Made by a program: the position numbers and the translations under genes. The notes beneath the pieces were generated by a model. That model saw only the letters and a list, made by a program, of their open reading frames with translations, had not been told where the DNA came from and searched no databases. From positions 16,306,001 to 16,370,000 of the forward strand of contig NC_071332.1 in NCBI RefSeq assembly GCF_010183535.1: 64,000 nt of DNA, in the 5' to 3' direction. Shown here in pieces: positions 15,343 to 40,207 of this stretch (the stretch's first letter is position 1; each line of letters begins with the position of its first letter). Source of the stretch: Caenorhabditis remanei (taxonomy: Eukaryota > Nematoda > Chromadorea > Rhabditida > Rhabditidae).

Positions 15343-16533
15343 CATATCGGGGGTGCACGAGGATAACTTGGCATTAATGAACTCCGTCATAATCGGACTC
15401 TTCCACACGTGACGCTTGAACAGCTTTAGTAAGCAGTTAAGGGTCGAATGCGTATAAGTCACGACTCTGGCTAGGGAGTTGCTTCGCTCGAATGGAACGA
15501 AAGAAACGTACTGTTCATTACACTGAGTTAGAAGACACATGCCCCGGAGGGCTTCAGTCAGAGCGTTAAACTCTGGCTGATCTGTCGATTTCTCGACAAT
15601 GTCTGCCGATTTCTCAGCAGAACAGTCTACCGATTGCTCAGTAGGGTTTACCGATTTCTCAGTAGAATTTTTGTCAGATTTCTTCCGTGCCGCTATTATT
15701 TCCGAGGAAATAAGTTCGCGGAAGTCCGAAGGGCAATTCACATTGCCTTCGAGGCGACATGGCCATGTACTTGGAGGATTCGTTAAGAAGTCCGGGCCGC
15801 GAAACCATAAAGAGCAATTCTTTAATTCTTCGCTTCCCATTCCTCTCGTGGCAATATCAGCGGGGTTCTGATCGGTAGGGCAATGATGAAATGTGGACGG
15901 AATCTCGAGGGATTGCAGTCGATCACATGCTTCATTGATTGCTTTTACACGATTACTGACCCAGCATTTCTTTTGCTCGTTACGAAGAATCCAGTACAAG
16001 GCGACCATCGCATCAGAGAAGAATCTGACGGAGCTTGGGCGCTCCGAAGTCATCGCCGTTTCTACTGACATAGCAATTCTTGTTCCAATCTCAATCGCGA
16101 GTAATTCGAGACGAGGGATGGTCAAAGTCTTACTAGCCGATGGTTTAATCTTCGATTTTGCGGTCAAGAGACCAACCTTGGGTGGTTTGTCATCATACTC
16201 ATAGAGTATGTACACAGCACAAGCGTAGGTATCTTTGGAAGCGTCCGAGAAAACTAGAAGATGACTCTTCTTGTATGGACCACTAGGTCGCAACATGCGA
16301 GGTATCGTAATTGATGACTCGGAGAATTGCTTCCTAATAGCCTCCCACTGATTAAGTAGGGATCGAGGGACTTTAGACTTCCAATCGATACCGTCCGACC
16401 ATAAGTCTCGCATCAAAAGTTTGAAGGAAACGAATAGTGGAGCTAGAACACCGAGGGGATCGAAGGTTTCAGCCATACGGGAGGCCACCTGACGTTTTGT
16501 CGGGTGTGTCTCTAGCAACGTTGCTAACTTCAC
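15343..16533 (-). CDS. Pol: RT thumb/connection and RNase H, truncated by assembly gap
   Basis: This frame is about 397 residues before the Ns. Residues 1-90 carry the BEL/Pao segment after the RT (MAETFDPLGVLAP). RNase H follows with catalytic candidates D97 (FSDAS), E143 (RLELLA), D174 (FSDAMVALYW) and D226 (DQNPADIATRG). Integrase should come next but the sequence runs into the gap at 15,342. The bases left of the gap are host sequence, so the frame reading across the Ns is an artefact. Confidence 0.8.
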
Positions 16534-16539
16534 CGTATA

Positions 16540-17810
16540 TGTATCTTTTTACAGATCCCAAGTGGTATCCAAGTAGTTTTACTGTCGTTTCGCTTGTGAT
16601 CTCATCCCGAGGGAATTTCGCCATCTCATCTTGGCTATTCGTGATATATTCCCGAAGACACATGTTCATTGAGTTGAACGTCCTTCTTCGAGTCAATCCG
16701 AAGATCTTGTATCTCAGCCTTATTGTTCGAGGTCAACATACGTTATCAACGTAAATGTTCTGCCGAATCCGCTCAGCGATGCCGTCGGTCATTGCATTTA
16801 AAGTAATGATCGATAGTGGCAGCGAGGAGAAACGGAGAACACGTCATTCCGAAAGGAATCCGAGTAAATCGGAACTCGACGATGTTACCTTTAACAGGAG
16901 GCTTCGTGATATCTTTCAACCAGATAAACGAGTACAATTACGATCCTCGGGGACCAGACGTACCTGGTGAAAGGCTTTTTCAATATCACCCACCACGAGG
17001 TAGTCAGATAACCGAGAGCGAATGAGAATGTCGAATAGATCAACTAGCATGGACGGTCCAGGGTCGAGGCATCATTAAGACTGAGCTCACCACCTTTTTA
17101 CTACTTGCATCCAATACAATGCGCAGTTTAGTCGTAAGTGAAGATTCCTTCACTACGACTCGATGCGGAATGTAATACAGCGGATCTGTATCGTTATCCA
17201 TTTCCGGGGTTACCATCTCAATAATACCACTGGCGAGTTGCTTCTTTAGAATATCGTCATAATCTTGCATCAGATTCTTCTTTCTTTTCAGAGAGAGAAT
17301 TAGCTGCTCCAGCCGTTTACCGGCAACGCCGCGGTTTGACGCGAGGCGTGATTGCTTTCCGTTCCACGGAAGGGACACTAGAAGATATCCTTCTTCGGTG
17401 TAGCGGATGTTCTTTTCGAACTCAGCAACGAGGTCTTTGATTTCCGTCTTCTTTCCCTCAATAGGTCCTGGTTCTTCGATCCCAACATTCTCGAGATTCC
17501 ATAGTTGGGAGATCTCCGTATGGAGACGATCCACGGGATCTTTTGAATCCGCCGGAGTCATCAGTGAACCGATGAAGCTTTCACAATGGAATGCGTCAAT
17601 CTCATCACTGATGGAGTCGGACGGGGGAAGTGAAGAACGAGGTGGGGGAAAGATGATCGGAGCAAACTTCGTAAGCTCGACGAATCTTTCTGATGGAAGC
17701 AACAGTCTCTTCGAGGTTCCTAATAATCGTGACAACAAATCGTTACCCAGGATCATATCAATGAACTGTCCGTTAAAGGAACTATCCGCTGATAGTCTGT
17801 GGGGGGTCAA
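16540..17810 (-). pseudogene. Pol: reverse transcriptase segment with frameshifts
   Basis: Hallmarks of a BEL/Pao reverse transcriptase are readable across three frames. These are an N-terminal region ending LRIVLDASSK (near 17,100), a GDIEKAFHQV block with the first catalytic Asp (near 16,970), a RIPFGMTCSPF block (near 16,850) and YVDN at 16,742-16,753. YVDN replaces the more usual YVDD. At least three single-base frame changes interrupt it, mostly at homopolymers (C6, A5). It is therefore a pseudogene, or the consensus has homopolymer errors. It continues into the RNase H frame. Confidence 0.78.
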
Positions 17811-18354
17811 TTTTCTTGTCTCGAAGATAGCTAATATCTGCTGCGTTCAAACGAGGGCACACAAATTTAGTTTTCGGAAGTCGGGGAGCACCTGCGATTA
17901 GCATAGAGAATGGTTTACCATCCGTATGGAAAGATATCTGATAAATATTTGACTGCTCGGTAGTAGTTTTGCTATATCCCGAAATGGTCAAAGTTTTTGT
18001 TGCTAGGATGTCCAGGCCAAAGCGTTCGGCACTCTTATGAGAGAGCACGGAGAGCGATGCACCGGAGTCGACTAGTGCCAAAACCTTGTGACCATCCGTA
18101 GTCCGAAGAGCTACAAATGGAAGTTTCGAGATCTCGCCACAATCTTCAACAAGGGAAGCGTTATACAGGCTTTCTTGTGTCAGACGGTCGAGGAATAGCG
18201 GTAAACTTCTACAGAGGAGTGGATACTTATCAGAATCTGGACCCGAAGGTCTTTCTAGAGGCGCTGTTGCTGGCGAGGCAACAGTTGGAATGCGAGCCAA
18301 GGACGGCCCAGAGTCTACCCCTGGAAATTTATTGCGAGCCCCCGAGGGGGCCAC
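17782..18354 (-). CDS. Pol: aspartic protease segment
   Basis: The frame contains LVDSGASLSVLS, the DSG active-site motif of a retroelement aspartic protease, followed by a region typical of BEL/Pao between protease and RT. It would process Gag and Pol. It has no ATG of its own. The frame is entered near a T-run at the end of frame G and is left near a run of six C (about 17,801-17,806), after which the RT continues one frame away. No intact join is written here. I annotate it as a segment of a broken pol. Confidence 0.75.
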   Translation of the reverse strand: MAPSGARNKFPGVDSGPSLARIPTVASPATAPLERPSGPDSDKYPLLCRSLPLFLDRLTQESLYNASLVEDCGEISKLPFVALRTTDGHKVLALVDSGASLSVLSHKSAERFGLDILATKTLTISGYSKTTTEQSNIYQISFHTDGKPFSMLIAGAPRLPKTKFVCPRLNAADISYLRDKKIDPPQTISG

Positions 18355-19744
18355 GAAAAAATTCAGACAGAATTGGAGCCGGGGCGTCAGATGGATAATT
18401 TCGAGGGTCGCGGTAGTACTCTTTCAGAGTGCAGGCTCCCGTGTTGTGTTTACCTTGACAGTAAGCACACGTACTGAAATTCTTGCAATCTTCGGTACGA
18501 TGGGTCTGCTGAGCACAGTTGTGACAGGACCCAGTGGTACGGAAGTATTGCCGAACTTCGTACGAAGAAAGAGCGCACTGAAGAATGGAGTGACCGGGAC
18601 CACAGATGAAACAGCATTTCGAGGCGATTTCGGAGTCTCGAGGGAAGGTGTGATGAATGAATCTCTCATCATAACCTCTACCGAGCTTATAGCAAGGTTC
18701 GAGCTTTTCTCCGGGTTGTCCTCTCATGCCAGGAATCCGAGGCTTTGGCTTGTCTGTCGACGGGGTTGACGTGGGATGTCCACCTTGGTAGTTCCCGGCG
18801 TTCGGAGCTCCTCTTGGAGTCTGAGGCGGGGGGTTCCCAAAGGCTGCAAAACCATAACTCCGAGGAGTCATATTTCCCTGGTGGGCATTGGGCTGAGCAC
18901 CGAAGTGTCCCGTTCCGGCTTCACCAGGAGAGCCATTGCCGACATTATTCGACTTGGAATTCTTAGAGGCATTCTTAGACTTGCCGTCTCTGTTCGAAGT
19001 AGGCGGGTCGTTATTTCTAACTTTCGGTTTCTTCGAAGAAGAGTTGGCGGAGGGGTCGGTACGAGTACTGACGCCAGAGTTAGAATTACCTTTAGAACTC
19101 TTAGATTTATTCGAGCTCGCGGATACAGTCATCACTGACTCGTCCGGGATCTCTTTCAATCTCTCAGAGGCTGCAGCAGGCCGAAAACGATCAAAGAAAG
19201 CAAGATCTTTATGATAGCTCTCGTATTTATCGAGGATCTGAGTCGTCGTGGGCTGCGCACCGTTGATAAACAACGGTTTGATGAAATTCATCACTGGTAC
19301 CGGGAGTTTTTCCATCAGATTGCGGACAAACGCGGGAGAATCTACATCCTCCCCTAGATCTCGAAGACGTAGGACAAGCGATTTGCCTTCCTGTAGTTGG
19401 CGAGAAGAACGTTTCTGGTCAGTCTCGTGAAAAGTGAGCTCTCTGAAGCGCTTCAGAGCTTCCGTAACTCCAGAAGTGTCACCCTCGAAGGCGGTACGAA
19501 GACCTGATAAGGTAGCTTCGATCGCCTCGGCGGGGACACTTAAGTCGACATAGAAGCGCTTAGCGTCTCCGACAAGCTTCTTTTCCAAGATGGCCAGTCG
19601 CATTTCATCGGAAATTCGCGGATTTTCTACTCCAAGTTTTTCGAACATCGAAATGAACTTCTTGTATCTGAGCGCATCGCCAGAAAATTTCGGTAGAATA
19701 GCTTCGAGGTCGTAATAAGACAACCCCTTGTTACTCGACTTCAT
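18329..19744 (-). CDS. Gag frame G, BEL/Pao Gag (DUF1759-like) with three zinc knuckles
   Basis: This is 471 residues. Residues ~10-185 match the usual BEL/Pao Gag region (pattern LEAILPKFSGDALRYKKF, then helices to ~185). A long Ser/Asn/Gly/Pro linker (~205-345) follows. Then come three CCHC knuckles: C378/C381/H385/C390, C407/C410/H415/C420 and C426/C429/H433/C438. It is the capsid and nucleocapsid precursor. It starts inside the stop of frame F (ATGA). The protease frame follows in a different frame, with the change falling at a run of six T (about 18,355-18,362), so either programmed shifting, a mutation or a sequencing indel separates gag from pol. Confidence 0.85.
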   Translation of the reverse strand: MKSSNKGLSYYDLEAILPKFSGDALRYKKFISMFEKLGVENPRISDEMRLAILEKKLVGDAKRFYVDLSVPAEAIEATLSGLRTAFEGDTSGVTEALKRFRELTFHETDQKRSSRQLQEGKSLVLRLRDLGEDVDSPAFVRNLMEKLPVPVMNFIKPLFINGAQPTTTQILDKYESYHKDLAFFDRFRPAAASERLKEIPDESVMTVSASSNKSKSSKGNSNSGVSTRTDPSANSSSKKPKVRNNDPPTSNRDGKSKNASKNSKSNNVGNGSPGEAGTGHFGAQPNAHQGNMTPRSYGFAAFGNPPPQTPRGAPNAGNYQGGHPTSTPSTDKPKPRIPGMRGQPGEKLEPCYKLGRGYDERFIHHTFPRDSEIASKCCFICGPGHSILQCALSSYEVRQYFRTTGSCHNCAQQTHRTEDCKNFSTCAYCQGKHNTGACTLKEYYRDPRNYPSDAPAPILSEFFRGPLGGSQ

Positions 19745-20928: not shown

Positions 20929-20966
20929 GGTTGATTGTTCACACGAAGGTGTAGGAAGATGAAAAG

Positions 20967-20969
20967 CTG
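20967..20969 (-). promoter_or_regulatory. Splice acceptor upstream of gag (TTTAATTTCAG)
   Basis: The minus strand reads TTTTTTAATTTCAG and the ATG of Gag frame F follows 38 nt later. Equivalent acceptors precede gene A (7,227-7,229), B (5,933-5,935), C (4,637-4,639), D (3,653-3,655) and E (25,642-25,644). They could accept a spliced leader in trans or a common 5' exon from the LTR leader. Confidence 0.55.
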
Positions 20970-22880: not shown

Positions 22881-22886
22881 GGATCA

Positions 22887-22892
22887 TTTATT
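22887..22892 (-). terminator. AATAAA of gene E
   Basis: This is a sense-strand poly(A) hexamer about 115 nt after the stop codon of gene E, before a 1.9-kb non-coding spacer. Confidence 0.5.
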
Positions 22893-23006: not shown

Positions 23007-25639
23007 TTACTGACCTTGCTCGTCTTGACGATCGCGAGGGCGTGTGGAATCTGGGCCGGCGGTGCATCGACAGACATGACCAGAGATTTTCCACAGTTGT
23101 GGAATCAAGGTCTTCTCTATCCAGATGAGCCACCAGTCCCCAGTTTCCCAGCGATAAACACGCATACTCGGGAATGCCAAATCAAGCGAGGTCTTGCCTC
23201 CGTGGAGCATCTCGACAGTGCAATCCGACATGCGAACCGGAGCTGACGCTCCGTTCTCGACGAGGCAACGAATAGCGAGGAGCACTGCTCTCCAAAATTC
23301 GAGGTAGCTCTTGAGACGCGGGTGGGGGCACGTATTGAGACGTTCCGTATGCTCACAGTTGGCCGTCATGGTCAATTGGATCGTCTTGATGCGGTGGATA
23401 ACCTCAGATTTATGTTCGGGGAACGGATAAACCAACATGATGTCGATTACGTCCAGCGAGGGAAATCTAGCGCGGTAGTGGTGGGGTGGGCGAGAAGAGT
23501 CGAGGGTGCGAATAGCTTCCTTAACTTCGAGTTCTCGAGCCCGTTCCACTTCTACAGAAATGCCTTCGTCAACGGGACCACCCAGCTCCTCCGAGTAGGG
23601 GAATTGAGTGGCCGGAGCGTTGAGAATGGCAAATCCTGCGGGTTCCGCCGCCATCCAACGATTCACAATCAAATCCATGGCCGGGTCTGTGAACAAACGT
23701 ATCGAGGGAATCACCTTAAACACCTCTCTATAGTCGGCTGGGATCATCTCGAATGCAAGACGAACATAGCAACGAGGGGAACCTACAAGAGAGTTTCCAC
23801 GGTCCACTAAATATCGAAGATAGCGTGTGATGGTGTCGTTAGACACATCTGCGCCCACTGGTTCGGAATCGTATTGCCCGGTCAGAATCAGCTGCCAAGT
23901 CTGGATCCGCCAAATGATGGCTTCTCTAGAATTGGGAGTCTCGAGGGACTCAAAGCTGTTCACGACGAGGGGGACGACTCCGAAAGAGTGACGATCATCC
24001 GGCATACAATTGACATTGTAGCGGATATAGCGGAGAACGAGGTTACTCAGTTGCTCTTCCATTTGCTGTTCGGCATTCGGGGGGATTCCACCAACTTCCA
24101 TCATAGCTGCGTTGAGTTGGAGATCCTGGTACTCATCCACAATTCGGTCAAATTCCTCATTGAAAGAATCACCAGGCGGCTCCATAATCAACTTGCTCCT
24201 CAGGTCGGTATCCATCACTTGGGGTGGATTAGAGTGGATGTAATTCAGTACAGACTGAACAGCAGCGCTGTTGGCCTGATTAGCCTGAGGTCCATACTCC
24301 TACAAGCTGACAAGAGTTTAACTTGAAAGTTTCATTAACACCAACCGAGGGTTGCGACTGGGACACTCGAGGGAGGGCTCTCGATGAGCTTGCCGTCGAG
24401 GTAGAGGCCAATGGCTTCAATTCCTGTAACAATACTCAGTCAATGGGTCATTTTCACGACTGTCTTACTTCATGAGCGCGGGGGATACTACGTTCGCCGT
24501 TGTTCGGAAGCTCGACTACACGTGCTCCTTGATTCTGAAATCAAGAGACTGTATTTCCTGAGATGGGGGACTGTCATCCGTTCTCACTTGAATCTTTCCG
24601 AGGGCATGAATATCGTCTGGAAACACGGGATCCGGCAGATAACATGTAAGCTTCACGATCAGTGGGATCTTGCCAGAGCGGCGGTTAGTCTTATAGACTT
24701 CTCGTGCTCTTTCCTCGAGCAATATGAACCAATCACATTGCTCATCGTCGAGGTAGACCGGGCCCAGTAATCGAGATGCTCCAGTTCTCTGTTCATGAGA
24801 CCGCGATAAGGCATCCATCGGTATGCATACTCCGGAATAACTCCAAACTCGTCCGCTGCAGGACTAGTAAGTGGTCCGACGCCACGAATGTGTTTTCCAC
24901 GAATCCCATTAAGCACAGCGGAGGGGACATAATCGTTAGGCAACGGGAACGCGAGGTACCCATTCTCGACTAACCAACGGATGCGTTTTCCACGTTTGAT
25001 TCTGATTGTTCGGACCTTTTCTTGGAATTGAAGTGGAGTGAGCTCGAGGTTACAAACACCGTGATAGTGCTGGTGACCCTGCTTGTGGCACTTGCGACAA
25101 TTTCTGGGCATGTCACACTTAGTGTGCGAGGCCGATCGAGAGTTGCAGTAACCACAGAACGCATAGCCATTGGCTACGGCGAACTCCAGTTTCTCCTCGT
25201 TGGAAAGGTAGCGAACGAATCCACAATCATTTTCGCTATGATCCTCGAGGGCAGTGCCCATACACGAGGATCCGCACGCGGAGCATCTGTTCGTCGCGTA
25301 ACGGTTGCCTGGAACCGGACGAGTCTTCGAATAGGTTCCTCTGATCATGGAGCGTATCCAATCCAAGAGTTGCCTATTATTAGCCATATAAGGCTCACGC
25401 TTCGTCACTTCACGAATGAAGTTTGAAGGGTGTGGCAGGTGTCCGGTTCTCATGTACCACAAGAGGTTTCCACGAGACATGGGATCTGTCAAATCTGCGA
25501 GGTCATCGTCACGGATCAGAGGGACGCGTTCAGCGTACGAGCAGAGCTCATCCGGTTGGTTCAAGATGTTGCTTGACACGACCAGTGCCGTCGCTAATTG
25601 CTGCGAGGGGCATTGTGGGAACGGTTGAGAGTCGTCCAT
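23007..25639 (-). CDS. Accessory gene E, triple zinc-knuckle protein with large unknown C-terminal domain
   Basis: Five exons, all joined in phase 0: 25,639-24,842, 24,788-24,588, 24,534-24,469, 24,423-24,346 and 24,299-23,007. The introns are 45-53 nt. The product is 811 residues. Knuckles run from residue 119: C119/C122/H134/C139, C162/C165/H172/C175 and C181/C184/H189/C196. The last is an RNCRKCHKQGH-type CCHC. This triad resembles the end of BEL/Pao Gag but sits near the N-terminus. Residues ~300-375 are Pro/Ser-rich linker. About 380-811 form a large, mostly helical domain that I cannot assign. An ATTCCAG acceptor lies only 2 nt before the ATG. AATAAA is at 22,892-22,887, about 115 nt after the stop. 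The first donor (GTTATT) is weak, so that junction is the least certain. Confidence 0.7.
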
Positions 25640-25659: not shown

Positions 25660-27674
25660 CACCGATAAACATTTCGTCTAACCAAAATAAGGCGGGATCA
25701 GGGAGGAGTAGGGTACTGGAAGTGATATAAAAACACGAACTGAACGCTACGAGCCGCTTAATGCCGATCTTACTTTAGCCACGTGGGTTTCAGCCACGAG
25801 GACAAGTTTATTAGCACACGTAAGAGAGGTCACGTTCTTTCGAACGTGGATTACGAGGTTTACACGCACTAATAATTTACGCATAATCTCGTTGTGTCAT
25901 AAATTTCTCAAAGTTTACTAGCTTTCGGTGGTCTTTCGACCGGTGAATGCATCTTCGAGGGGATATGACCACGCATGGATGGTAAATTCGCTTGAATTTT
26001 CATCGATGCATGAAAAAAGGAAGAAAACCTCCTTTTAGAGAGACGTGTTCCTTGATTTTTGCGATACGCTGCAGTTCGATCAAGCAGCATTAGAAAGAAC
26101 TGAGGTTTCATTTGTAGATTACTACGAAATGATATCACTTGTCAAGGAGGTGACAGGCACCTTTGCCATCGTCAAGTTTCAGAACGCGCACCCTGGGATA
26201 ATCGAGATATTCCGCTGGTGGGCCTTCTGATTCCATCAGACCGCCGAACATGAACGATTAACTCCATTTCCCATACGGGGGGAAGAAAATACATTGATGA
26301 ACGAATTTGAGATGAAATCTCGGTACAAGAGGCTCTTCAATTTCAGTCGCTTGACATCATCGAAGTCGTCACGAAGCCGTGACGTGTAGGGATGAACGAG
26401 GTGTCGTGGTAGAAAGAACTTGTCCCGAAGGCCCTTTTGTCGATCAATTGGACACTTGTGACTAGTTATTCTGTGAGGCGATTAATCCACGTAATGGCAT
26501 GTAATCAAATTCCGCTCTTGCGAAATCTGTACCAGTACGCTCCGGTTGCACCAGCTGGTTCAACTGGATTAGAGCCGATGCGCAATAATTTGTTGCATTC
26601 GCGAACTTCTGCAGTTATAGCCCCGAAAGGTGTATAGTGCATTAGTTCTTAAGTTCGAGTTCTCGAGGTGATAGCCGGTTGCTCGGCAGTGGCGCTCGAA
26701 CGAATCTCAATCTCCGAGGGAGAGAGATAAGTACGATTGGCACAGCGGAGGGATCGGGATCATGCTCGATTGACTCATAATTGACCTAGATGCTCGAAAT
26801 CGTGCTGCAGGCATAGAATTTTCTCGCGAACAGAATTAACTTATCGATTAAAACACTGTGTATTTGACGCACCAAATACACCTGATGTACCAATAATAGG
26901 TACTTCGTCGTCGGTCACTGAATAGTGACATGAAGTATCTAATCTAATCGCAAATCATCATCTACATCCTCCTCCTTCTCTTAGCGTTAGCATCATAGAT
27001 CCGGATTATAGTTATTTATCCCGAGGGAATGGACCGGTTTTTAAGATCGTATTGATCACCGACCCGGATTACCCTGAATCTCGGCTTAATCTCAGGAGCC
27101 ACCTGAGAGTCATCGCTCCGATTACAGGTCTAGGTTTTTCCAATTGAACGCTTATTCAATTAGACGGGGAGATTGTAACCGATTTGTGAGTCTATTTCAC
27201 CGCAGATGCTCCGAAGTGCAACAAATTGGTGTGTCATCTCATGCCCGGAGGCGCTGGAACTAGTCCAATCGAGTTACGGCGTTAGCTGCCTGCTAATTAT
27301 CTACCCAACAGTGCAATAAATTGCACCAAAATGCACTAAATGAGCCTGAGGGCGTTTACTTAGTGACTGATTTACAAGGTATCATTTTACTCAGACACGA
27401 GGTCATAGAGACGGATGAAACTCCTTTTAGCCTCACACAATCCGAAGATCGATATGAGTATGATGTTTAACTTCTACCCATAACTTAGAAGAAGGGGAGC
27501 CCTGCGAATTGGCCGGCACTTCCCTGATTCGTGGCATTCAGTTCATGTTTGGACGTCAGATAACGAGGGAGGCAAGTAAATAACGAGGAATGAGCTAGAA
27601 TTAAAATAATAATGAGTTTTTACTCATATCATATGCCGGAATTGAGGTCGCGAGAAATTAACAACAACACTGTT
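25660..27674. other. Non-coding spacer between genes D and E, copy 2
   Basis: This 2-kb spacer follows the poly(A) signal of gene D and precedes the acceptor of gene E. A 61-residue plus-strand frame (26,045-26,230) has protein-like composition but no neighbours or splice sites that would confirm it. Otherwise nothing is recognised. Confidence 0.4.
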
Positions 27675-27754: not shown

Positions 27755-29738
27755 TCAATTCTTGGCATTTCCGTGCTCTTCCTTGATCGAGTTCTCCGAT
27801 TTGACTACTGGAGCCGTTTCTGACTTCTCGACTTTCCTTCCTTTCTTGGCGAATTTGAACTTCTTTCCGCCACGAGTGTGCTTCTGTTTCTTTGCCTTTG
27901 GCTCGTCGCGGTTTCCATTGCTGGAGGTAGCAGCGAGGGCTGGGCGCTTCAACGAAGGCTCGTCTTCCTCATCAGAATCTCCTGATCCATGGATCACATG
28001 CTCCGGTTTGACGCGGAAGCCACCTGCAGGTTGCGGACCGGTATGATCGAGGTATTTGGCCATATTGCTACTGAATTCCTCATCAGCTACTGGAGCGATC
28101 GAGGTAGCAACAACATCATTCTCTGAGGCCGTGACGACGGCAGAAGAAATTTTCTTCTGATATCGACGAGGGCACAAAGTCTGATGGTGTTGACGCTCTT
28201 CAATGGGCAACGAGGCGGAACAGCTACGACAAACACGGTTGGCGGCCTTGCAGGTTGCTTCGGATCCGTCACATCCGGCTTTTCCGCAGATAAGACAGCG
28301 GTGCTCATTCAAGAGCTGCTGACGTCTCGAGGGGAGGTCCGGATAGACTTGGCATCTTGCCGCATCATGGTTCTGGTGACAAAAGAAGCATTTCACCGAG
28401 TTCTGAACAAAACTGAATTAGAAGGGATCTAAAATCACACAAACGTACGAGACGACGGTTCTCGAGAAGCTTGCGCTCCATATGCTCAGTATTCTTTTGA
28501 ATCTGTGCGAGTTCCGAGGATTTTTCGAGCGCGTAGATCTCTCCGAGGGCTTGCGAACGATGCTCTTCGGCGGGATCTTCGAGATCGAGGATCTGCTTGT
28601 AGCTGGCCTGTTTCTCTCGGATGTCCGCTACCAGAGTCTTCAGTGACCTGACTTCGTTGGCTTGCTCGAGGGCGGATACTTTGCGGGCGATGTAATCCCT
28701 CAACGAGTTGTACACGCGTGTGATCTTCAACGAAGTCTTTTCGAAATCTTCACGATCGAACTTGCCCTGGTCAATGAGCTGCTGAACCAGACCGTTTCCT
28801 TGGCCCTGGCGTTTGGAGATACGACGTTGATCCTCCGCGATCGACGTGAGCTGTACCAGGAAATTGTTCATGTTACTGGACAATCCCTGGAGAGCAGCAA
28901 ACGGAGCGAGGTTCTCGATCATATTAGTCCAGACGTCGAGGGTGGGCAAACGATCGATGATGTCAGCCTTTTTGACGAGGGTGTCGAGGTCAGATTTCAA
29001 AGCCAACTTCTCCAGATCCTTCTTTGTCACGAAGTTGTTGAGCTGATCGGGGGTGACAGAAGTATCGACTAAAGTTTGAACCAATTCCAAGATATTCTTG
29101 AGCTTGTCGTCAATCGAGGGAATCTTTTCCAAATTCAGAAGAGCCTCATTGGTTCGGATCTCGATTTCCGTCATCTCCTCTTCACCGTTTTCGACGAATT
29201 CGGACACTGGGCGAGGGCCCTGGTCGTTATTCTTCGATTCCTGGAAAAGGGGAATAGGACTTTCAGGTATTCCGTCGGGGTAAACAAAAAAGTTTAGAGG
29301 CCCTTGGATTACCTGCTGATTTGGCGGGATCGTTTCCTCTTTCGAGGGTGAATTTCCGGCAAATTTCGAGGTATCGTCACCGATGTCACTTTCGTGACCT
29401 GAGGACTCTGCTGAAAATAGAGCCAATTAGCCGCGATTCAGAGAGCTGAATTGCACTAACCGTAGTCAAGTTCTTCTTGTTCGAGTGCTTTTCCTTCCGC
29501 TGCGCGTTCAGCGCCTATCCCGAAGACAGACGGTTCAGGCGAGGCTTCTAGAAAAGAAAACTAGTCACTCTCACTCAATGCCAACGATCAAATTACCTTT
29601 TGGGTCATCGAGGAGCTCATTTTCACGAGCCTTCGATATTTCCGGCAAGGGAATCTGAGAGATTGGCGGGAGATCGGCATCGAGGATGGCGTCATTGAGC
29701 ACCGGCTTCATATCAAAACGCGATTTGCTAGTGGTCAT
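27755..29738 (-). CDS. Accessory gene D, coiled-coil protein with Gag-type zinc knuckles, copy 2
   Basis: This is the same gene as at 1,660-3,643. Exons are 29,738-29,597, 29,547-29,461, 29,410-28,449 and 28,402-27,755, with no disabling change seen. Its poly(A) signal is at 27,680-27,675. Confidence 0.72.
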
Positions 29739-29908: not shown

Positions 29909-30696
29909 TTACGGGAATCTCCATTTGAGTGACAAGATCGAATCGAGGGATCTCGATTGTAACTTGTGATGCAGCTGCAACATCGCTTTTTGGGCGATTT
30001 GACGGGTTTTACAGAATTCCGATAGGCCGTTCGAGTCCTGATGTGATAGCGAGGGTAGACATCCGCAGACTGATTCGTTTTCACGGATTAGTCTCATCGA
30101 GGATAATCTTGAAGTGGAGTAGCGAGGGCGGGGGGCGGTAACATCCACGTAATCAACGATTGCGGAATGCAGCGCCGCCCACTGTTCTGAAGGACCCGTG
30201 CTTCGAAAAGGACGTACACCAAGAGCCTCCGGAGTCTTCTGGAGAAAGAATTCTCCATTCAACTCGAAAGCCCGAACAGCATGTTCGCGCTGAGACTCTA
30301 CTTCAACCAGAATCCACGTTGACCACACTCGGGAGTGTGACACGAATTGATACGCTCGAACTACGACTTCAATCATCGCGGGGGCTGTAGAAATCTGAAA
30401 CTAGAGGCATCATTAGATAAAATTGTCTGCTTTTCTGGCTAACCGTCGATTCCTCGAGGCGTCTGAATTCATAATTACGTGGGCCATATGACTCTACAGC
30501 TCGAAAGCGAGTGAAATTGGGTTCCGAGATATCCATGAAACTGACACTTTTCTTAATCGGCTTCGCATAGCGAGGGATTTCAGCGAGGGAACGATACGCT
30601 GGAAATATCAAGGTTTATCGCTAGGATTTGATCGATTTGGATACTCTGACGAGGGTCCGCATCTTTCCAATCCGAGGGATTCTGCTTGATGTCCAT
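29909..30696 (-). CDS. Accessory gene C, unknown protein, copy 2
   Basis: This is the same three-exon gene as at 3,814-4,601. Exons are 30,696-30,645, 30,598-30,444 and 30,394-29,909, all in frame, with the same poly(A) signal and spacing to gene D. Confidence 0.62.
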
Positions 30697-31404: not shown

Positions 31405-32014
31405 TTAGAGATTCCAGGTTGAAAAAGCTCTTCTCAGAGTCGACATCTCGGACAGAGTCTCAGCGCGGGTCGGTCCCGAGGGCCAATAGGTACGGATACG
31501 AGTAGTCGAGGGCAGCTCAAAGAGGTGCGGCTCGATTTTAATATCCTCCATATTTTTCCCTGCTCGAAGTCCATCGGCAATTACAGCTGCGAATGCGAGG
31601 GCTTGACATTCTGGCGGATCTGAGTGATCGTACAGAGGGTCATCGTACCACGGATCACAGTTGCAACGCGGATGTTCGACTGGAACCGAATTCCGATGCC
31701 AAGTCGCGAATTCGACCTTCACGAAAAATCCATCCTAAAATACAGAACCATGGGTGAGTCTAACGGAAATTTCTCACGTGAGAATGTGGTTCGGCGGAGC
31801 ACTCTGGGGGAGGTCGAGGAGGATGTTCGTGATAGAACACGAATTTATCATCGATCCACTGATACCACTTAATTGCGTCTTCCGTAATGGATTCGAAGTT
31901 AAGCGGATCATAATCAACCCGAACCGAGAGATACGGAACTCCGTGCGACTTTATCGAATTCAAAGTGAACCCGATCGCAGGAAAGCCAAAGTCCACACCG
32001 TTTGACCCAGTCAT
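31405..32014 (-). CDS. Accessory gene B, unknown protein, copy 2
   Basis: This matches the gene at 5,310-5,919. Exons are 32,014-31,778 and 31,734-31,405, with the same acceptor upstream. The only nearby difference between copies is one base at 6,041 against 32,136, outside the coding part. Confidence 0.65.
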
Positions 32015-32589: not shown

Positions 32590-33301
32590 TCAGTTGGCTT
32601 GGCCTACTGGGAAGTAATCGATTTCTTCAAGATAACCTGAGAATTCGAGGTTCCCGAAGGCGTTGTCATCCGAATCATCTTTCTCATCATCGGACGAAGA
32701 CGGCGGGTTATCTGAATCAGATTCTCCGGCATCCGAGTCGTCAGAAGAGTCAGACGAATCCGAGGATTCACCACAATGTTCAGACGCAAATTTGCTGATA
32801 CAACGATCCACGAGGTGGCTGTCTAAACGTCCCTTGCGAACGTCTCCGAGGACTTTCTCAAATAATCTTGCGATTCTCTGAAACATTTTGGTGATGCTGG
32901 GATATCTAAATCAGCTTATGGTACCGTGCAGGCCAAAAAGTGTTTTCGCTGTTTGCGAAGGTCCTTCTCGAATTGCGTGATTCCATGATAAGGGTCACCG
33001 AGGCGTGGAGGTGCGAGCTTACAGACTGTCGGGTCAACATCATTGCTGAACTTGCTGCGGAACATCTCGTACATTCTATCGAATTTCGGAGTCATGTTTC
33101 GGAGCGTGTCGGCAAAGTAATGAAACGAATGCATCAATGCATTCTGACCGGACACCAGAAGGTCGAACTCAATACGCGTCAGAAGCTGATCTAAAACACC
33201 ATCATCTGCAATTTCTTTCTAGGTGTTCGGTTAGTCTTACCCTCCGAAGGCTCCGAGGGGTTTCTATTGTCCGAAGGCGGACGAGATCCCTTTCCCGACA
33301 T
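32590..33301 (-). CDS. Accessory gene A, acidic-tail protein, copy 2
   Basis: This is identical in structure to the copy at 6,496-7,207. Exons are 33,301-33,241, 33,205-32,925 and 32,877-32,590. It is open throughout with the same splice sites. Retention of an intact spliced frame in both copies, next to a leader that has drifted, supports coding. Confidence 0.65.
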
Positions 33302-34945
33302 CGTAGATCGCGAGTGATAGCTGAAGCATAATAAATATGACTCAACTGACTCTGGGAGATACGAGTACAAGAAAAAATCACGGAGGCAGATAAGAGAAAA
33401 CTAAATGCGAATTCCTAGAAAAGAAAAAACTTGCGAAATGCAAAGCGCCGAGGTTCGAGATGACGAGAGATAGTTAACGACATCAGTCGAAGGAGTCACC
33501 TTCTCAGACATCACTGACTAGAGCTCTACGCGAGAAGTTTCGCCGCAACACGATACTAAACCATCTCAAAGCTCAACGAAAGCTAACTTCATATCGATCG
33601 GGACCGATACTAGGGAAGCAAAAAACAAGAGGCTTCGGAATCATGACAGATTCCGTGATGTAGTTTGTCTGGAGTATAGTGTAATCATTAGCTGGAATAC
33701 GGTCTCTCTTAAACGTCTATCATTCTCATCGAGTTTAAGTATGACTCGGGGAGTGACTATCCGTGTAGATCGTGGTGGAGTCGAGGTATCGCTAGCCTAA
33801 TAAGGCCCTCCGCTTGCCAGGCGGCCGGCCCGTTAATCTAACGATCCGCTTAAGAGTCGCTGCACCGAGGAGTACACTGACAGTCTATCGCCGAATCACG
33901 CAGAAACGAAACGAAGACTTGAATGACAGAGAGGATCCGTAGTCCAAAAACGACTACTAATAACTACTGAGGGATTCGAGGGTGAGCGGACGGAATTACA
34001 CTTGAAAGGGTAGATTACGAATCACTATTCGAAATAGCCACTCTCATCCACACACGAGGAAGACTACATACCAAACTGCTCGATCGAAGATTCGATGGAG
34101 GCGAGTGATACGAGTTTCAGTCGGCGTTTCGCACCACAAATCTAGATCGACCCGAGGGTGGAGTAGATTTGAGGCACCAAACTAATGAAATGAAATATCA
34201 AATGCGCTGCATAGAATCACCAAATCCGATGCATAAAGCACCAAATATGATATCTAGCTACGCTAAATGCCCTGATAGAATCAGAGCAACTTCGATACTC
34301 ATCTCTTCCGACTGTCCTACTAGCATAACTCCGGCGGCTCGCTCTTATCCGCCTATACCGCAGACTAGGACACCACTTAGTTTATGCTCTTTCTCTCATC
34401 CAGATGTGTTTCACGAGTGGAAGTCAAGACTGGAAGTATTTTCGACAACGATTGTAAACAATCTTCAGATTTCGGAAGAGATTTCTCAGTCACTATTGTG
34501 TCTAAACGACACAAAAGCCACGCGACGTGACGAGACATACTCTGCGAAAAACGGTCTAGAATACCCCAAATCCCAAACGGGACAGCGGATTTCAAACGAA
34601 ATTAACGCTTCAAGAATTCCGTTGCAATTAGGGGGAAACCTTCTACGTTCCGCTCACGAAGAGGGGAGGTATACTAATTTGCCCGAACTACACTCGGTAC
34701 TCCTCATCTTTCATAAGATACTCAGAGTTCCGCGTTAAGAATGATAGAATATCTAGGATCTGGAGCCGAAACTCTGGTTCCATACATCATCTACGTTTCC
34801 TTAGCAAAAATTATCCGATAGCACTAAATCTGGTTATAAAACTATCATAGTCAATGGCACCGTGGAGCAGTGAATTCTAGAATTCACGCTCCGGGGGGCC
34901 AGAGGATCCGAATGCATCCTCGATCCGAAGATCCTCGCCCGATAA

Positions 34946-35150
34946 GCGAGGAGACACTCACGCTGATTGAAAAGAATTGATCGGACGCCATCGATTCTCT
35001 GGTCCGAATAGAAGCTCTCAAGGACTTCTCCGAAGAGATTCCGAGTGCCCCAATCGGCGTCAGAAAATCTGAAGCGACGGAGAATTCTTCAATCAGCTAT
35101 CACTTCCGCAAACGGGCAAGCCCGTGTTAAAACACAGCAAAAAGTGAGAG
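34946..35150 (-). repeat. ~200-bp leader module, gene-proximal occurrence, copy 2
   Basis: This is a diverged second occurrence of the module at 37,559-37,770 within the same leader. A TCGGAC...GTCCGA stem, a TCAGA...TCTGA stem and the terminal double hairpin are all present. Copy 1 has an internal deletion of about 110-170 bp at the matching place (near 8,855). Confidence 0.5.
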
Positions 35151-37558
35151 CGTCTTTCACTAAACGAGGGAGGGTTCCGGAGTGAAAAATGCACCAGATC
35201 GCCTATGATCGTTTCTCAACCAGACTCGTACTAGAATCCTCCCGAAACATAATCAATACGCTCCGGGGGGCCAGAGGATGCTCCATAGGGAGTGTCCTCC
35301 TCAGATACTTGAGCCAGAATCGGTAAACGAAAGATATCGTCTCAAACCAATACGGCCGACTACTCCATTAGTCTTCAGGACGATCCGCAAGCGCGAGTCT
35401 TGCGACCTGCTGCGAGGGGAGTGACCTTACGACCCGAAATAACCGGTTTGACTATTTCAGCTCGTATTTACATACTACTGAATATGTCGGTCGCTGAGGC
35501 CTTTCGAATACAGCACCTCAACTAAGTCTTCTGGTAGATAGGTCAGTTTTCGAACTAACGATGATGGATTCGGTTGAAAATCAAAACGCATGTATCCGAG
35601 GAAGGATGCTCAAAAGAGCTTCCGCTCGATACGAAATTCAGCCGATTCGATCAGATCAGAACGAACTGGAACCCACTTAATGCTTAGCTCTCCGAACTAC
35701 AATTGATACGGGTGCGGTCCCTCGCGGTGCTTCGATCTCATCCACACTATGTACGGAGAGAATAGAAGAACGGAAAGAGAGCGCAGCGTTATCACGAAAC
35801 GGAAGACTCGCTAGCACTAAGCATTTCTCGTAGAGGAGATTCGTTCGGCTCTGACCGGCAAATCCAGGCGCTTAAAGAAAGCGCCTGTCGGATAGCGGGG
35901 CAAAGGCGAGGATTCATCAACCCATGAGAATATATCTATTCCCAGAAGACACGTGTGAAATTACTCAGTTTTTCTGCGATAGTAGCGACTCGCTTAGTTA
36001 AAGAGATAAGACCAATCAATCAAGACTATTGACCCATCGTCCATATCCGGTCAGGGAACAAAGGGTACCGACTGCTCGATCGCCCTCGAATCTACTCACT
36101 ATGAAACGCATGCGTTCAAAGTTTTTGATTTTAGGCATCAGTCTTAACCCTCCAGAATCCTGATACGGAGCTGGGGGACGATCAACAATCGATCGACTGT
36201 AATCCACTCTTTATCAGAGAGAGTCTGAAAGCGAGGGACGGGTTCGAGGGTACCACTAGAAGACTTAAGAGGTGTGTTATCGAGGTGACGGGGATTCGAA
36301 AGACCCGAAATAGATCGGGGGAGATCAAATCGCCGAGGCTCGCATTAACACCATCGGAATCAACTAGAACCGCTTGTGTCTCGAGGAACCGATTAGGAAA
36401 TATCGCTTATTCCCGCTCGGGCTCTAAGATTAGCAGTAAAAGGTCGCCTCAAACGTATCGCTACGCTATCTCCTACGACTTATGAAATTCTGGGCCTTGA
36501 GTTGCCCCTCATATAGCAGGTTTTGCTTCGCTCACTCTCAAACGACTGCCGAATTATCCGAGGACGATAAGGCGAGAGAAACTAGGCCGAACCTTAAATG
36601 AACATCTCATGGAGACTCGTTAACTCGAGGAGGCGGAGTACGAGACAGGTATGCACCTGCGCCGTGTCGCAAACAGTCGAGGGGTACTGTAGTCAAATGT
36701 ATGTCGGAATCCCAAAGGGAGACGGAGATACACTGGGGTTACAGTTCCTAATCGATACAAAGATGGAGCACCTGAGGCCAACAGCGACTCCAACACATGG
36801 CAGTATGCGGTCTCTTGCCTGGCATCCCTGATACCGATCCCTAACGAGTATGCATGAGCATCAAAACTATACTCGGAAGCAACACAAGCTTCACACCAGG
36901 GGGCTCGCCTGCTCTGCAACAGAATCAGTACTATTCAACAAATCAGAACGATTTCCGATTAGAATAGAAAAGTACCGAAACTAGCATCAGCCGACCCGAG
37001 GTCTGGAGGACAATATCGATGTCGGGGATATCCCTCGCCTCACGAACGGGATCGCATGCAGTAAAAACTGCTGATCGCGCAATCAGAGGACTGGCAATCG
37101 ATACTACTCGAGCTCCGGAGAGGGCAAGCAGATCGATAAACCAACAAAGGAGTCGCCGAATATCAACACTATGCTCGAAACCAGGGACCCCCAGTTTTCG
37201 TTTACATTCTCCTTCCGCTCAAGCTCTCAAAATCTAAACCACGGAGCTACCTTTCGGCGGCCCCGCAGGAGCTTCTGATTGCTTTAAACTTCCGGAGAAT
37301 GTCTTGAATCCAAAGCATCGATTGCAGATTATCGATACGGAAGCGAATTATTGATCGCCGGTCCTATCGGAACTCTCGAGGGCTTCGAATTAATCCGAAT
37401 CCCGAGAATGTTCGGACGAGGAGGGGATAAATCGATAAAGCTTACGTATGTAACCTCCAAGTGACACTATGAACCCGCATAGAGGCTCCCTCCGATCCAG
37501 CAAGCTGGCATGAAGGGACCTTGACTCTTAATTGTTATTATCTAAAGCGGCTGGTAAG

Positions 37559-37770
37559 CGAGGAAGACACTCACGCTGATTGAAGAGAACTGATCGGACG
37601 CCTACTATGATTCTCCGGTCCGAATAGAAGCTCTCAAGGACTTCTCCGAAGAGATTCCGAGAGCTCCAATCGGCATCAGAAAACCTGAGGCGTCGGAGAA
37701 TTCCCAAATCAACTATCACTTCCGCAAACGGGCAAGCCCGTGTTAAAACACAGCAAAAAGTGAGAGCGTC
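37559..37770 (-). repeat. ~200-bp leader module, LTR-proximal occurrence, copy 2
   Basis: This is the counterpart of 11,300-11,503. Comparing it with 34,946-35,150 in the same leader shows that the stems are kept and the loops vary. Confidence 0.5.
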
Positions 37771-37889
37771 TTTCGCCAACGAGGCACTAAAGAACAAACA
37801 AAAAAGAAGCCAAGTTGCTTCTGCCCGAAGGAAGAAGCGACACAAGAGAAAAGACACAAGAATCCAGCACGAGCGTCATCAAACGCGAC

Positions 37890-38830
37890 CATCCACGATA
37901 CTTCACCTCAATTTCTACCATTTCTGGCTCGGTCGGGGCTTCGAAAACATTCGAAAATGCTTCGAAGACGCGAGGAATTCCAGATCCGGTGAGAAACACG
38001 AGGGAAGTGGAGCCAAACGACGACATCCGAAGTTAGCGATGCACTAGAATCCATCCACGAGACTTCTGATCGTTCTCCGCCTGTTCTGATTCGCCCGTGA
38101 TATTCGAAGAGGTTCGAAAACGTTTCGAAATCGCGGGGGAATTCAGAAGCCGGCGAAAAAACGAGGGAAGTTGACGAAATGACGAAGACTGAAGCACGCG
38201 AGGCACGAGGGAGCCATCCAACACCAATGACAGCTTCCCATGTGTGCGAAGCTTGACGTAGCCATCCGAAGGAATTTTTTGAACAATCTTCGCCTCGCCC
38301 GACTCGTTCGGGTATTGGAGACATTCGAAAATGTGTCCGCTACGCGAGAGAGTTCGGGGTCTGGCAAAAATATCACAAAAAATCGACTTACAGACAGAAA
38401 ACGAAGCATTCGCAACACGAGGGAGCCATCCGAAACCATCAGCGAGACTTCTGATCGATTTCCACCGGTGTTCCGACCCGCTCGGGATTTTCGAAATATC
38501 ACGAAATATTTCGAAATCCGGAAAAGGGTGGGAATCCCGGCGAAAAACCGAGGGAAGTTGATCCAAACATCAGCAAACGAGGCGTCCGAAACACGAGGAA
38601 GCCACCGCAGACGATCCATTGAAACTTCTGATCGATTCTAGCCGGTGTCCGATTTTTTCGGGATTTTCGAAATGTTTCGAAAAGTTTCGAAACACTCGAA
38701 ATCCGGAAAAAATGAGGGATAACGGGTCGAAACGAGGGAAGTGGAACGAAAAAGCAGCAAACAGGTGAAGGAAGCCCGAACCATCCGTTGAAATCGACGC
38801 GAGGGGGTTCCGATCGAATTCCAGCCAAAT
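37890..38830 (-). repeat. Degenerate ~180-bp tandem array in leader, copy 2
   Basis: This is the copy 2 equivalent of 11,640-12,560. It has the same unit order and the same TTCGAA-rich cores, with indels that break every long frame seen in copy 1. Confidence 0.6.
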
Positions 38831-39465
38831 TTCAGCAAAAACCGCGGTGAAGTAGCTCGAGGAGTCGAAATCCATGACGAGGCGTGGTGAATTCGAGTGT
38901 AATTGGGCGATTTCGCGTTGAAATGCGCGGAAAGACCGAAAAACCTCGATTTTCCCGAGGGAAAAGAGTTTTTTTCAGCCAATCGGCGGAAATCTTGGCG
39001 AAAATTGCCGAATTTCTCGAGTATCTGACCGATTTCAGGCCTTTCTCGAATAATTCCGTCGGGAATTCGCGAAAAAATCACGAAACACGAGGGAGAAACG
39101 AGAGAGAACGATGAAAAACGCCCGGAAATTTGCGCAAAAAGTGTGAAGGCCTAAAGCCGCAACGCGGCGCAGCGCTTCGCACTAGAGCGAACTTGCTTCC
39201 AAATTTAAAGGTGGGGCCAAAATTGGCGCCAAATTCAAAAAAGGAAAGCAAAATTTCGGGGAGAAAAACATCGAAAAACCCGAAAATGAAGTTTGCGAAG
39301 AAGTTTTTCGCCGTTCACGTTAATTTTCCGAGGGAAAACAAGTGAAAACTGTACATTAAAATCGAAAAATATCGATTTTATCGGACAAAAAATGGGCAAA
39401 CCGACTGATTCGTCCGGTCGAGGGGAAAAATCGATAATCTCGAAATTTTCCGCCCGAGCGGATAC

Positions 39466-39483
39466 TTCCCGGTCGATGCACCA
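39466..39483 (-). promoter_or_regulatory. Primer-binding site, tRNA-Gly(GCC) type
   Basis: The plus strand reads TTCCCGGTCGATGCACCA, two bases before the LTR. From memory, the 3' end of metazoan tRNA-Gly(GCC) with its CCA is TTCCCGGCCGATGCACCA, so 17 of 18 positions agree. The minus strand is therefore complementary to that tRNA, exactly where reverse transcription of a minus-strand LTR element would be primed. This fixes both the LTR boundary and the orientation. Confidence 0.85.
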
Positions 39484-39485
39484 AA

Positions 39486-40207
39486 TGTGGCCACCCCTTC
39501 TGTCTCCAGAAGGCCGCCGGTAATGAGCCGAGTGGGGTGGGAACATGGGCCCAAAATAGACTTCCGTTTTAGGTGGTTCAGAGGTAAAAGGAAGTGTCCC
39601 GCTGTACAGTTAACACGTGTATTAAATAACCGATTTATTCAGGGGAAAAGCATGACCCGCGAGGGACTGCATTAAAAACCTGATCGATTATTTCCTTTCG
39701 GAAATTACATGAAAAGGGAGAAAAAAGGAGTAAGCGAGGTATTCGAGGAGTCGCTCAGGGGATTCCTAGCTTGTTAAAGCTTAGGGGTGTCCAGAGAGAC
39801 GCCGGCGAGGCTCGCGAACAACTTCTACAACAAACAACAAAAGAGAGAATTGTTAGAAGAACAAAACTAAAAACAAGACTGATTTAATTAATGGCTTTAG
39901 GCCAGGTGAGGGTGTCGGTCGATTACGGTCACAGTCGTTGATGGATGTGCGGCGCGGCGAGACCCGACGAGGAAACAGCGTGCGCCTTTGACTGAAGAGA
40001 CGCAGACACGACGATGGCGGCGATTTAAATAAAGTGGAATATTACTTCCGCCTGAAATGGGGTTAAAGGAACAGGGAAGAAGGGAGGTAATTAAATGAAA
40101 GTAAAATATGTAATAAATATAAACTAAATTAGAATAATTTAGTAATATAAATTACATTTTAGTTTGGAGTGTGGCAGGGACCTGATTCGGGGACCAGGGG
40201 ACTGACA
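39486..40207 (-). repeat. 5' LTR of element copy 2
   Basis: This is a 722-bp LTR homologous to 13,225-13,935, with the same TGT...ACA ends. Differences from copy 1 are a few per cent by eye, including indels near the middle. At 40,208 the sequence switches at once to a LINE, so the element sits at or in the 5' end of that LINE copy. No 3' LTR of this copy is seen. It would have to lie in the gap at 15,243-15,342 or be lost. Confidence 0.85.
39634..39639 (-). terminator. AATAAA in LTR, copy 2
   Basis: This is the sense-strand poly(A) signal within LTR copy 2, equivalent to 13,372-13,377. Confidence 0.55.

What the first reader, a model, noticed from the sequence alone, without database searches (positions are those of the whole stretch)
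15343..40207. A ~25-29 kb BEL/Pao-like element with five extra genes and a 6-kb leader
Seen directly: LTR, tRNA-Gly-type primer site, long leader, five accessory genes, two Gag frames and BEL/Pao pol, all in one orientation over 24.9 kb and partly repeated in a second copy. BEL/Pao elements are known as 5-10 kb gag-pol elements, some with env. An element this size with spliced accessory genes has no counterpart I know in nematodes. Inference: it may be a giant retrovirus-like lineage.
Basis: partly seen in the sequence, partly recalled or inferred. Interest (0 to 1): 0.95.

Follow-up and report, generated by a model that had tools for sequence, protein, structure and literature searches.

The report
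Giant multi-gene BEL/Pao retrotransposons in nematode
A roundworm genome carries young, 24-28 thousand-letter relatives of a normally small kind of jumping gene, each with several extra spliced genes of unknown job placed before its structural and enzyme genes, which challenges ideas of how large such an element can be and what it needs to copy itself.

Summary
The giant element is real. In the window it lies on the minus strand from the 5' LTR (40210) to an assembly gap (15343). The same genome (C. remanei) holds relatives at separate loci: LTR pairs bounding 28.2-28.3 kb (two sites), 22.3-26.6 kb (six), 18.5 kb (one) and about 12 kb (four). All 10 insertions whose two complete ends I read have exact 5-bp target duplications; 8 of those 10 LTR pairs have no substitution. 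The window's 'second copy' is an assembly join: its 5' part and flank belong to a chromosome-C3-type insertion, and the window element's true 3' end is at C5:16291754. Before gag-pol lie four spliced accessory genes (A, B, C-D, E-F), not five, in constant order, mostly with dN/dS below 1, and mixed by recombination. C-D carries a zinc-knuckle domain homologous to Gag's. E-F relatives also sit upstream of pol in divergent BEL/Pao families, one of them about 19 kb. I found no sign of an envelope protein, so 'retrovirus' is unsupported. Best reading: an old, recently active lineage of giant BEL/Pao elements with spliced accessory genes whose function is inferred, not shown.

The parts
40211..40215 (-). 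Target-site duplication GGAGG at the 5' end (the other half is at the 3' end of the assembled copy 1, left of C5:16291754)
39486..40210 (-). 5' LTR, 725 bp, TGTTG...CCACA
   Evidence: pairs and ends in other copies
39466..39483 (-). Primer-binding-site candidate TGGTGCATCGACCGGGAA, 2 nt after the LTR; resemblance to the tRNA-Gly 3' end is recalled; E1 and other copies read TGGTGCATCTAGACCAG or similar
33302..39465 (-). Leader of 6.2 kb, no gene recognised; 95% identical between E4 and E6 over the first 7.9 kb of the element
32590..33301 (-). Accessory gene A: exons 33301-33241, 33190-32925, 32877-32590 (204 aa in E4)
   Evidence: GT..AG introns of 50 and 47 nt; relatives in E3, E4, E6, E7 at 89-100% and more distant ones
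31405..32014 (-). Accessory gene B: exons 32014-31778, 31734-31405 (188 aa in E4)
   Evidence: intron of 43 nt; relatives at 83-86% in E8-E11; no hit in E6/E7
27755..29426 (-). Accessory gene C-D: helical region (353-codon frame 28365-29426) spliced to zinc knuckles and basic tail (frame 27755-28417); intron 28448-28403; a further 5' exon is likely
23007..25639 (-). Accessory gene E-F: exons 25639-24588 (three zinc fingers; frame broken in this copy), 24534-24469, 24299-23007
   Evidence: agrees with C. remanei gene models CRE_03401, CRE_20081, CRE_06247
18329..20928 (-). gag, two frames in this copy, one ORF in E4; knuckles, DUF1759-like region, knuckles
15343..18423 (-). pol (protease, RT, Pao domain), frames broken in this copy and cut by the gap; integrase and 3' LTR missing here
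15243..15342 (.). Assembly gap of 100 N
13936..15242 (-). Host flank that belongs to the C3 (E4) locus: sign of an assembly join
   Evidence: 99.6% over 1312 columns
1..13935 (-). 5' half of the second assembled version ('copy 1'): left part equals copy 2, right part is E4-like

Best explanation
It is a BEL/Pao LTR retrotransposon of a giant, multi-gene lineage in C. remanei. Shown: copies of 23.6-28.3 kb (LTR, leader, accessory genes, gag, pol, LTR) with exact 5-bp target duplications and near-identical LTR pairs, so they inserted recently; accessory genes in fixed order before gag, mostly with dN/dS below 1; introns present in inserted copies, so the reverse-transcribed RNA was not spliced at them; C-D shares the Gag-type zinc-knuckle domain. 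Inferred: one transcript from the 5' LTR serves unspliced as a genomic RNA of about 27 kb, primed by a tRNA; subgenomic mRNAs made at splice acceptors just before A, B, E-F and gag (cis-splicing from the leader, or spliced-leader trans-splicing) yield the accessory proteins; C-D and perhaps E-F act as extra nucleic-acid-binding, Gag-like helpers that bring a very long intron-containing RNA out of the nucleus and into particles; recombination between co-packaged RNAs shuffles the modules; copies that lack the Pao domain and integrase, some also RT, are moved by complete ones.
For: LTR pairs at separate loci; TSDs in 10 of 10 insertions with both complete ends read, LTR substitutions 0 in 8 of 10, 3/724 in E6, 1/723 in E13. 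Full Pol order with the Pao domain, E 9e-55. dN/dS of C 0.11-0.30, D 0.16-0.39, E 0.16-0.44, F 0.36-0.54, like gag 0.20-0.40. GT..AG introns; E-F gene models. D against Gag knuckles: hhalign 97.66%, E 2.4e-12, score 62.9, versus 16.6-32.4 in 10 C/H-preserving shuffles. Constant order A-B-(C-D)-(E-F)-gag-pol wherever present and C-D/E-F-like genes before gag in a distant family. TT.CAG within 60 nt before the ATG of B, E-F and gag in E4, against 37 of 440 ATGs overall. Deleted copies with TSDs: E10, E13.
Against: No RNA or protein data; the function of the accessory genes is analogy only. A has only CTTCAG before its ATG, the E3 gag lacks the acceptor seen in the other gag copies, and the start of C-D was not resolved. 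E's zinc fingers are not detectably related to Gag's: score 10.3, below all 10 shuffled controls. F has no fold match and low-confidence models. Some copies lack B, E-F or all accessory genes. B has too few changes for a selection test; A exon 3 is 0.55-0.62 in two of four pairs with a ratio or count. The primer assignment is recalled.
Confidence: 0.78

Rival explanations
1. The length is an artefact: nested insertions or an assembly join have put ordinary elements side by side.
For: The window itself has a gap and a chimeric second copy; E3 is followed by a duplicated LTR stretch.
Against: The same layout between paired LTRs with exact TSDs at sites on C1, C3, C4, C5 and C6; internal parts do not occur with boundaries of their own in the searches made.
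Confidence: 0.03
2. The extra genes are passengers, captured and carried without helping the element.
For: B and E-F are absent from E6 and E7; E13 has none of A to F, yet it has moved; E-F is a relict in E8 and decayed in E5.
Against: dN/dS below 1 for most exons; relatives in the same order in a family only about 20-30% alike; the profile search found only three proteins, all C. remanei, no host-wide family. Elements without some modules could be served in trans.
Confidence: 0.12
3. The accessory proteins act mainly against host small-RNA silencing or degradation, not in RNA export and packaging.
For: Fast divergence between copies (C 41-49%, A down to 32%) is what conflict with a host would give; nothing shown here excludes it.
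Against: C-D carries a Gag-type knuckle domain, which fits RNA binding and packaging more directly.
Confidence: 0.3
4. It is an endogenous retrovirus whose envelope is one of the unknown proteins.
For: Size, spliced genes and young insertions recall complex retroviruses.
Against: No 19-residue window above 1.58 in A, B, C, D, E-F, Gag or Pol; no envelope family in Pfam for E-F, C, D, Gag or Pol; extra genes lie before gag, not after pol.
Confidence: 0.03

Closest known systems
BEL/Pao (Belpaoviridae) LTR retrotransposons, e.g. [quoted passage not shown]
   Same: Pao domain, Pol order, zinc-knuckle Gag, LTRs with 5-bp TSDs
   Different: 24-28 kb instead of one or two ORFs in a far smaller element; four spliced genes before gag; 6-kb leader
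Burro giant elements of planarians (PMC6431247, passages)
   Same: animal LTR element over 20 kb with extra coding capacity
   Different: Burro is Ty3/gypsy-like, in thousands of copies, with the extra domains mostly in one huge polyprotein and env homology
Ogre elements of plants (PMC6431247, passages)
   Same: 16-25 kb with one or two extra ORFs of unknown function
   Different: Ogre's length is largely LTR; here the LTR is 0.7 kb; Ogre is Ty3/gypsy (recalled)
Cer1 and its CERV protein in C. elegans (PMC10309623, abstract and passages)
   Same: Caenorhabditis LTR element that makes a spliced, fast-evolving accessory protein; unspliced genomic RNA must be exported
   Different: Cer1 is Ty3/gypsy-related with one such protein; no homology between CERV and A, B, C-D or E-F was tested
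Foamy-like endogenous retroviruses of fish (PMC6431247, passages)
   Same: accessory ORFs enlarge the element, up to 17 kb
   Different: retroviral pol and env; smaller

Membership tests
BEL/Pao LTR retrotransposon | Pao domain (PF05380) in Pol | tested here: met
   E 9e-55, 185.5 bits against a cut-off of 22.3, E4 Pol 642-804; window fragment E 2.8e-56
BEL/Pao LTR retrotransposon | Pol order protease, RT, Pao/RNase H region, integrase | tested here: met
   protease 110-161, RVT_1 464-590, A17 642-804, Integrase_H2C2 1093-1147 (24.6 bits, just under its cut-off of 25.5), DUF5641 1391-1480
BEL/Pao LTR retrotransposon | Paired LTRs TG...CA with short target duplications | tested here: met
   10 of 10 with 5-bp TSD
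BEL/Pao LTR retrotransposon | tRNA primer site after the 5' LTR | tested here: inconclusive
   TGGTGCATC... 2 nt after the LTR in the copies read; the tRNA was not matched by a tool, tRNA-Gly is recalled
BEL/Pao LTR retrotransposon | Gag with BEL/Pao-type domain and zinc knuckles | tested here: inconclusive
   knuckles present; DUF1759 21.3 bits, below its cut-off of 25.4
BEL/Pao LTR retrotransposon | RT phylogeny within BEL/Pao | not tested
   no reference set of named RTs was held; no tree was built
Burro-type giant Ty3/gypsy element | Ty3/gypsy Pol with extra domains fused in one polyprotein | tested here: not met
   Pao-type Pol; separate spliced genes
Retrovirus or env-bearing LTR element | envelope glycoprotein with membrane anchor | tested here: not met
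   hydropathy of seven translations, no Pfam envelope match
CERV-type regulated element | spliced accessory protein needed for export of unspliced genomic RNA | not testable with these tools
   needs RNA and mutant data

The most novel reading that the evidence does not exclude
A whole clade of nematode BEL/Pao elements has evolved a complex-retrovirus-like programme without an envelope: a genomic RNA of about 27 kb, a battery of spliced regulatory and Gag-like helper proteins (at least one built on the Gag nucleic-acid-binding domain) that export and package it, and a cloud of RT- or integrase-deleted 12-25 kb derivatives that live on the helpers of complete copies and exchange modules with them.
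Probability: 0.45. Interest if true: 0.88.

Novelty: new variant of a known kind. Interest (0 to 1): 0.78.

Why it matters
Retrotransposon length was thought to be held near 10 kb by transcription, RT processivity and packaging (PMC6431247, passages); the large animal retroelements named in the passages I saw are Ty3/gypsy-like, Penelope-like or foamy-like retroviruses. These would be giants of BEL/Pao type, with accessory genes kept over long divergence, in a genus that can be studied at the bench. They make it testable what a retroelement needs to export, package and reverse-transcribe an RNA of about 27 kb that contains introns.

Tried and rejected
Independent tandem copies in the window: rejected, because flanks and identity steps show a join. 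Third LTR after E3: a duplicated stretch with the same flank on both sides, not a further insertion. An open frame of 163 codons between B and C (window 29909-30376): in E6 only 88 codons aligned, so not counted as a gene. E as a Gag knuckle: not supported. Fold of E-F and of F: low-confidence models (mean pLDDT 55.7 and 65.7); F gave no match at E of 0.001 or below in 'pdb' (52 at E up to 10) or 'viral' (92). Profile of E-F against sequences of solved structures: three matches at E 0.55-0.96, not meaningful. Rfam at gathering threshold on window 13000-40400: none. Single-protein search with E: none at E 0.001. Papers: the nine answered searches listed nothing on giant BEL/Pao elements or such elements in C. 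remanei as far as titles, abstract starts and the passages I read show; most subscription papers, Repbase and Dfam were not searched. Dropped rows: one search used 58 of the 139 A17 rows and 32 of the 37 rows (five short weak rows left out). The LTR searches scored 40 of 85 and 40 of 90 candidates, so copy numbers are lower bounds.
Full report
WHAT WAS CHECKED. The window is C5:16306001-16370000 of a 130-Mb assembly. The host is taken as Caenorhabditis remanei, because the accessory protein E-F finds only C. remanei proteins; that the assembly is strain PX506 is recalled from chromosome sizes.

ANATOMY IN THE WINDOW. On the minus strand: 5' LTR 39486-40210, primer-site candidate from 39483, 6.2-kb leader, gene A from 33301, B from 32014, C-D 29426-27755, E-F 25639-23007, gag from 20928, pol from 18423 to the gap. 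Element G+C is 45-50% in 2-kb steps, most of the DNA to its right 33-42%.

INDEPENDENT COPIES. The window LTR finds 40 places, 40 of 85 candidates being scored. Same-strand pairs: E1/E2 (window); E3 C4:23603134-23631404, 28,271 bp; E4 C3:16124079-16152303, 28,225 bp; E5 C4:21665434-21683952, 18.5 kb; E6 C1:4201733-4225584, 23,852 bp; E7 C6:5474669-5498278, 23,610 bp; E8 C5:14.09 Mb, 26.6 kb; E9 C5:11.92 Mb, 22.3 kb; E10 C6:11.21 Mb, 24.9 kb; E11 C4:8.58 Mb, 22.4 kb; four of about 12 kb on C4 (E13-E16). Exact 5-bp target duplications: E1/E2 GGAGG, E3 ACAAC, E4 CAGCG, E6 TCATC, E7 GCCTC, E8 GATCT, E9 TAAAT, E10 TGTTT, E11 GGAAC, E13 ATAGG, that is 10 of the 10 with both complete ends read. E5 has a truncated 5' LTR and was not testable; E14-E16 were not fetched. 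LTR pairs: no substitution in E1/E2, E3, E4, E7, E8, E9, E10, E11 (E8 and E11 one gap column each); 3/724 in E6; 1/723 in E13; 6/723 in E5.

THE SECOND COPY. Window about 2.2-7.2 kb equals copy 2 at 99.9-100%; further right, to 13935, identity is 96-98%. The rest of copy 1 to the left of the window start equals copy 2 at 99.7-99.9%. The flank 13936-15242 is 99.6% identical to the 5' flank of E4 on C3. Copy 2's 5' flank and copy 1's 3' flank share the duplication GGAGG, and those two LTRs are identical, while copy 1's own two LTRs are not. So one insertion was assembled twice, with a chimeric contig end. The last kilobase of copy 2 before the gap is 100% identical to E4 while most of its neighbours are 96-99%, a further sign of mixed reads. 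Window copy 2 has the E exon, gag and pol split over several frames; the other assembled version of the same insertion has E 377, F 430 and pol 1965 codons open, and gag open in two overlapping pieces.

GENES. Four spliced genes precede gag. Six introns measured in the window are GT...AG: 43, 46, 47, 50, 53 and 169 nt; the same sites were seen in E4 for A, B, C-D and E-F. E-F as one gene agrees with the gene models CRE_03401 (808 aa), CRE_20081 (803 aa) and CRE_06247 (699 aa), the only proteins found by its profile. C-D joins a helical region to a triple zinc knuckle; nine D and five Gag knuckle sequences align by hhalign with probability 97.66%, E 2.4e-12, score 62.9, against scores of 16.6-32.4 (probability up to 87%) in 10 controls that shuffled every residue but C and H. 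E has eleven invariant C/H positions (C122, C125, H137, C142, C165, C168, H175, C184, C187, H192, C199) in 9 sequences 19-63% identical to the first, but homology with Gag knuckles was not found: score 10.3, below all 10 controls. Pol has the BEL/Pao order and a tail of some 480 residues without a Pfam match.

SELECTION. Nei-Gojobori dN/dS. C: 0.11 (E4/E3, E4/E2), 0.12 (E6/E7), 0.23 (E4/E6), 0.30 (E4/E8, E4/E10). D: 0.28, 0.35, 0.16 and 0.39, two pairs saturated. E: 0.44, 0.28, 0.22, and 0.16 with E5. F: 0.52, 0.54, 0.36, 0.39. A exon 2: 0.26, 0.26, 0.32, 0.40 with E5, one pair with 0 synonymous and 3 nonsynonymous changes; A exon 3: 0.55, 0.62, 0.14, others without a ratio. B: too few changes (all pairs together 5 synonymous and 4 nonsynonymous). 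Gag 0.20-0.40; pol 0.02-0.16, apart from its tail (0.34-0.58), the broken copy 2 (0.32) and the deleted E5 (0.65-2.0).

MODULES AND MOSAICISM. Gene A: 11 hits: E1-E4 98-100%, E6/E7 89-90%, E8-E10 and a C6:1.45-Mb copy 32%, E5 39%. Gene B: 13 hits: E1-E4 99-100%, E8-E11 and the C6 copy 83-86%, four weak ones elsewhere, none in E6 or E7. Gene C: 18 hits: 13 at 41-100% (E1-E4, E6-E11 and three more loci) and five at 28-29%. E-F: 46 hits in E1-E4, E10, a relict in E8, a second subfamily (C4:4.07 Mb, C4:19.19 Mb, C15, C31, C100) and distant ones. Nearest relatives change along the element: E4 is closer to E6 in LTR, leader, A and pol, but closer to E10 in B, C, E-F and gag. That is the mark of recombination.

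DERIVATIVES. E10 keeps gag and part of RT but no Pao domain and only the very end of the integrase region; E13 keeps gag, protease and Pol tail but no RT, Pao domain or integrase; E5 likewise lacks RT. No Pao-domain match in the list falls within E5, E9, E10, E11 or E13-E16. E9-E11 and E13 have TSDs and near-identical LTRs, so they moved recently, presumably in trans.

WIDER FAMILY. A BEL/Pao family about 20-30% alike in these proteins has the same order: D-like knuckles (E 1.4e-4), E-like 563 codons (E 7e-17), F-like 418 codons (E 2e-4), gag 929 and pol 1746 codons; places like its presumed LTR lie about 19.0 kb apart at four sites and about 14 kb apart at five others; no TSD was read there. 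Of 32 E-like loci taken from the 37, 23 have a Pao domain 5.7-14 kb downstream on the same strand, 2 have it upstream and 7 have none among the 58 (of 139) pol hits used.

MECHANISM. Shown: intron-containing DNA copies with TSDs, so the reverse-transcribed RNA was unspliced at those introns. Inferred: subgenomic mRNAs by cis- or trans-splicing. In E4, TT.CAG lies within 60 nt before the ATG of B, E-F and gag; A has CTTCAG; the chance rate is 37 of 440 ATGs; the E3 gag lacks the site. A role of the accessory proteins in export and packaging is by analogy with CERV of Cer1, a spliced protein needed for genomic-RNA export (PMC10309623, abstract and passages). No protein looks like an envelope by hydropathy or Pfam; the highest 19-residue mean, 1.58, is close to the usual cut-off of 1.6 (recalled).

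NOVELTY. The 2019 review of giant transposons (PMC6431247; 12 of 18 passages shown) names Burro, Ogre, foamy-like fish retroviruses and Terminons, and in those passages no BEL/Pao giant. The BEL/Pao survey of 2011 (PMC3118150; passages) does not contain the word remanei. My nine answered paper searches listed no such element. I file it as a new variant of BEL/Pao.

Noticed in passing
window 40207-42023 and 50123-51940: Two copies of a LINE-like reverse-transcriptase gene, 96.8% identical; the giant element sits at the 5' end of the first.
   Followed up: partly
window 45839-46417 and 47851-48428: Inverted repeat of 579 bp, 99.3% identical, each arm with a 19-bp tandem array.
   Followed up: no
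C4:23643877-23645174 (L015): Exact duplicate of the E3 3' LTR with its flank, 13.5 kb downstream; real duplication or assembly error.
   Followed up: partly
C2:2810417-2829397 and three like it; 14-kb pairs on C3, C4 and C5: Another BEL/Pao family of about 19 kb with C-D- and E-F-like genes, and shorter likely derivatives of about 14 kb.
   Followed up: partly
C3:1895437, C4:6473051, C1:15586063, C1:2704572: Weak gene-B-like hits (30-31%) in open frames of 181 codons, perhaps a further element family.
   Followed up: no
Pol tail, E4 element about 26150-27548 (L018): Tail of Pol after the integrase region is rich in repeated short motifs, varies between copies and runs into the 3' LTR.
   Followed up: no
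window 37555-38800 (leader): Diverged repeats of roughly 130-230 bp in the leader, 70-75% alike, plus one stretch (37555-37784) about 90% like 34943-35169.
   Followed up: no
C4:10673933-10685918 and three other 12-kb elements on C4: Short derivatives; the one read (E13) has gag, protease and Pol tail but no RT or integrase, and is a recent insertion.
   Followed up: partly
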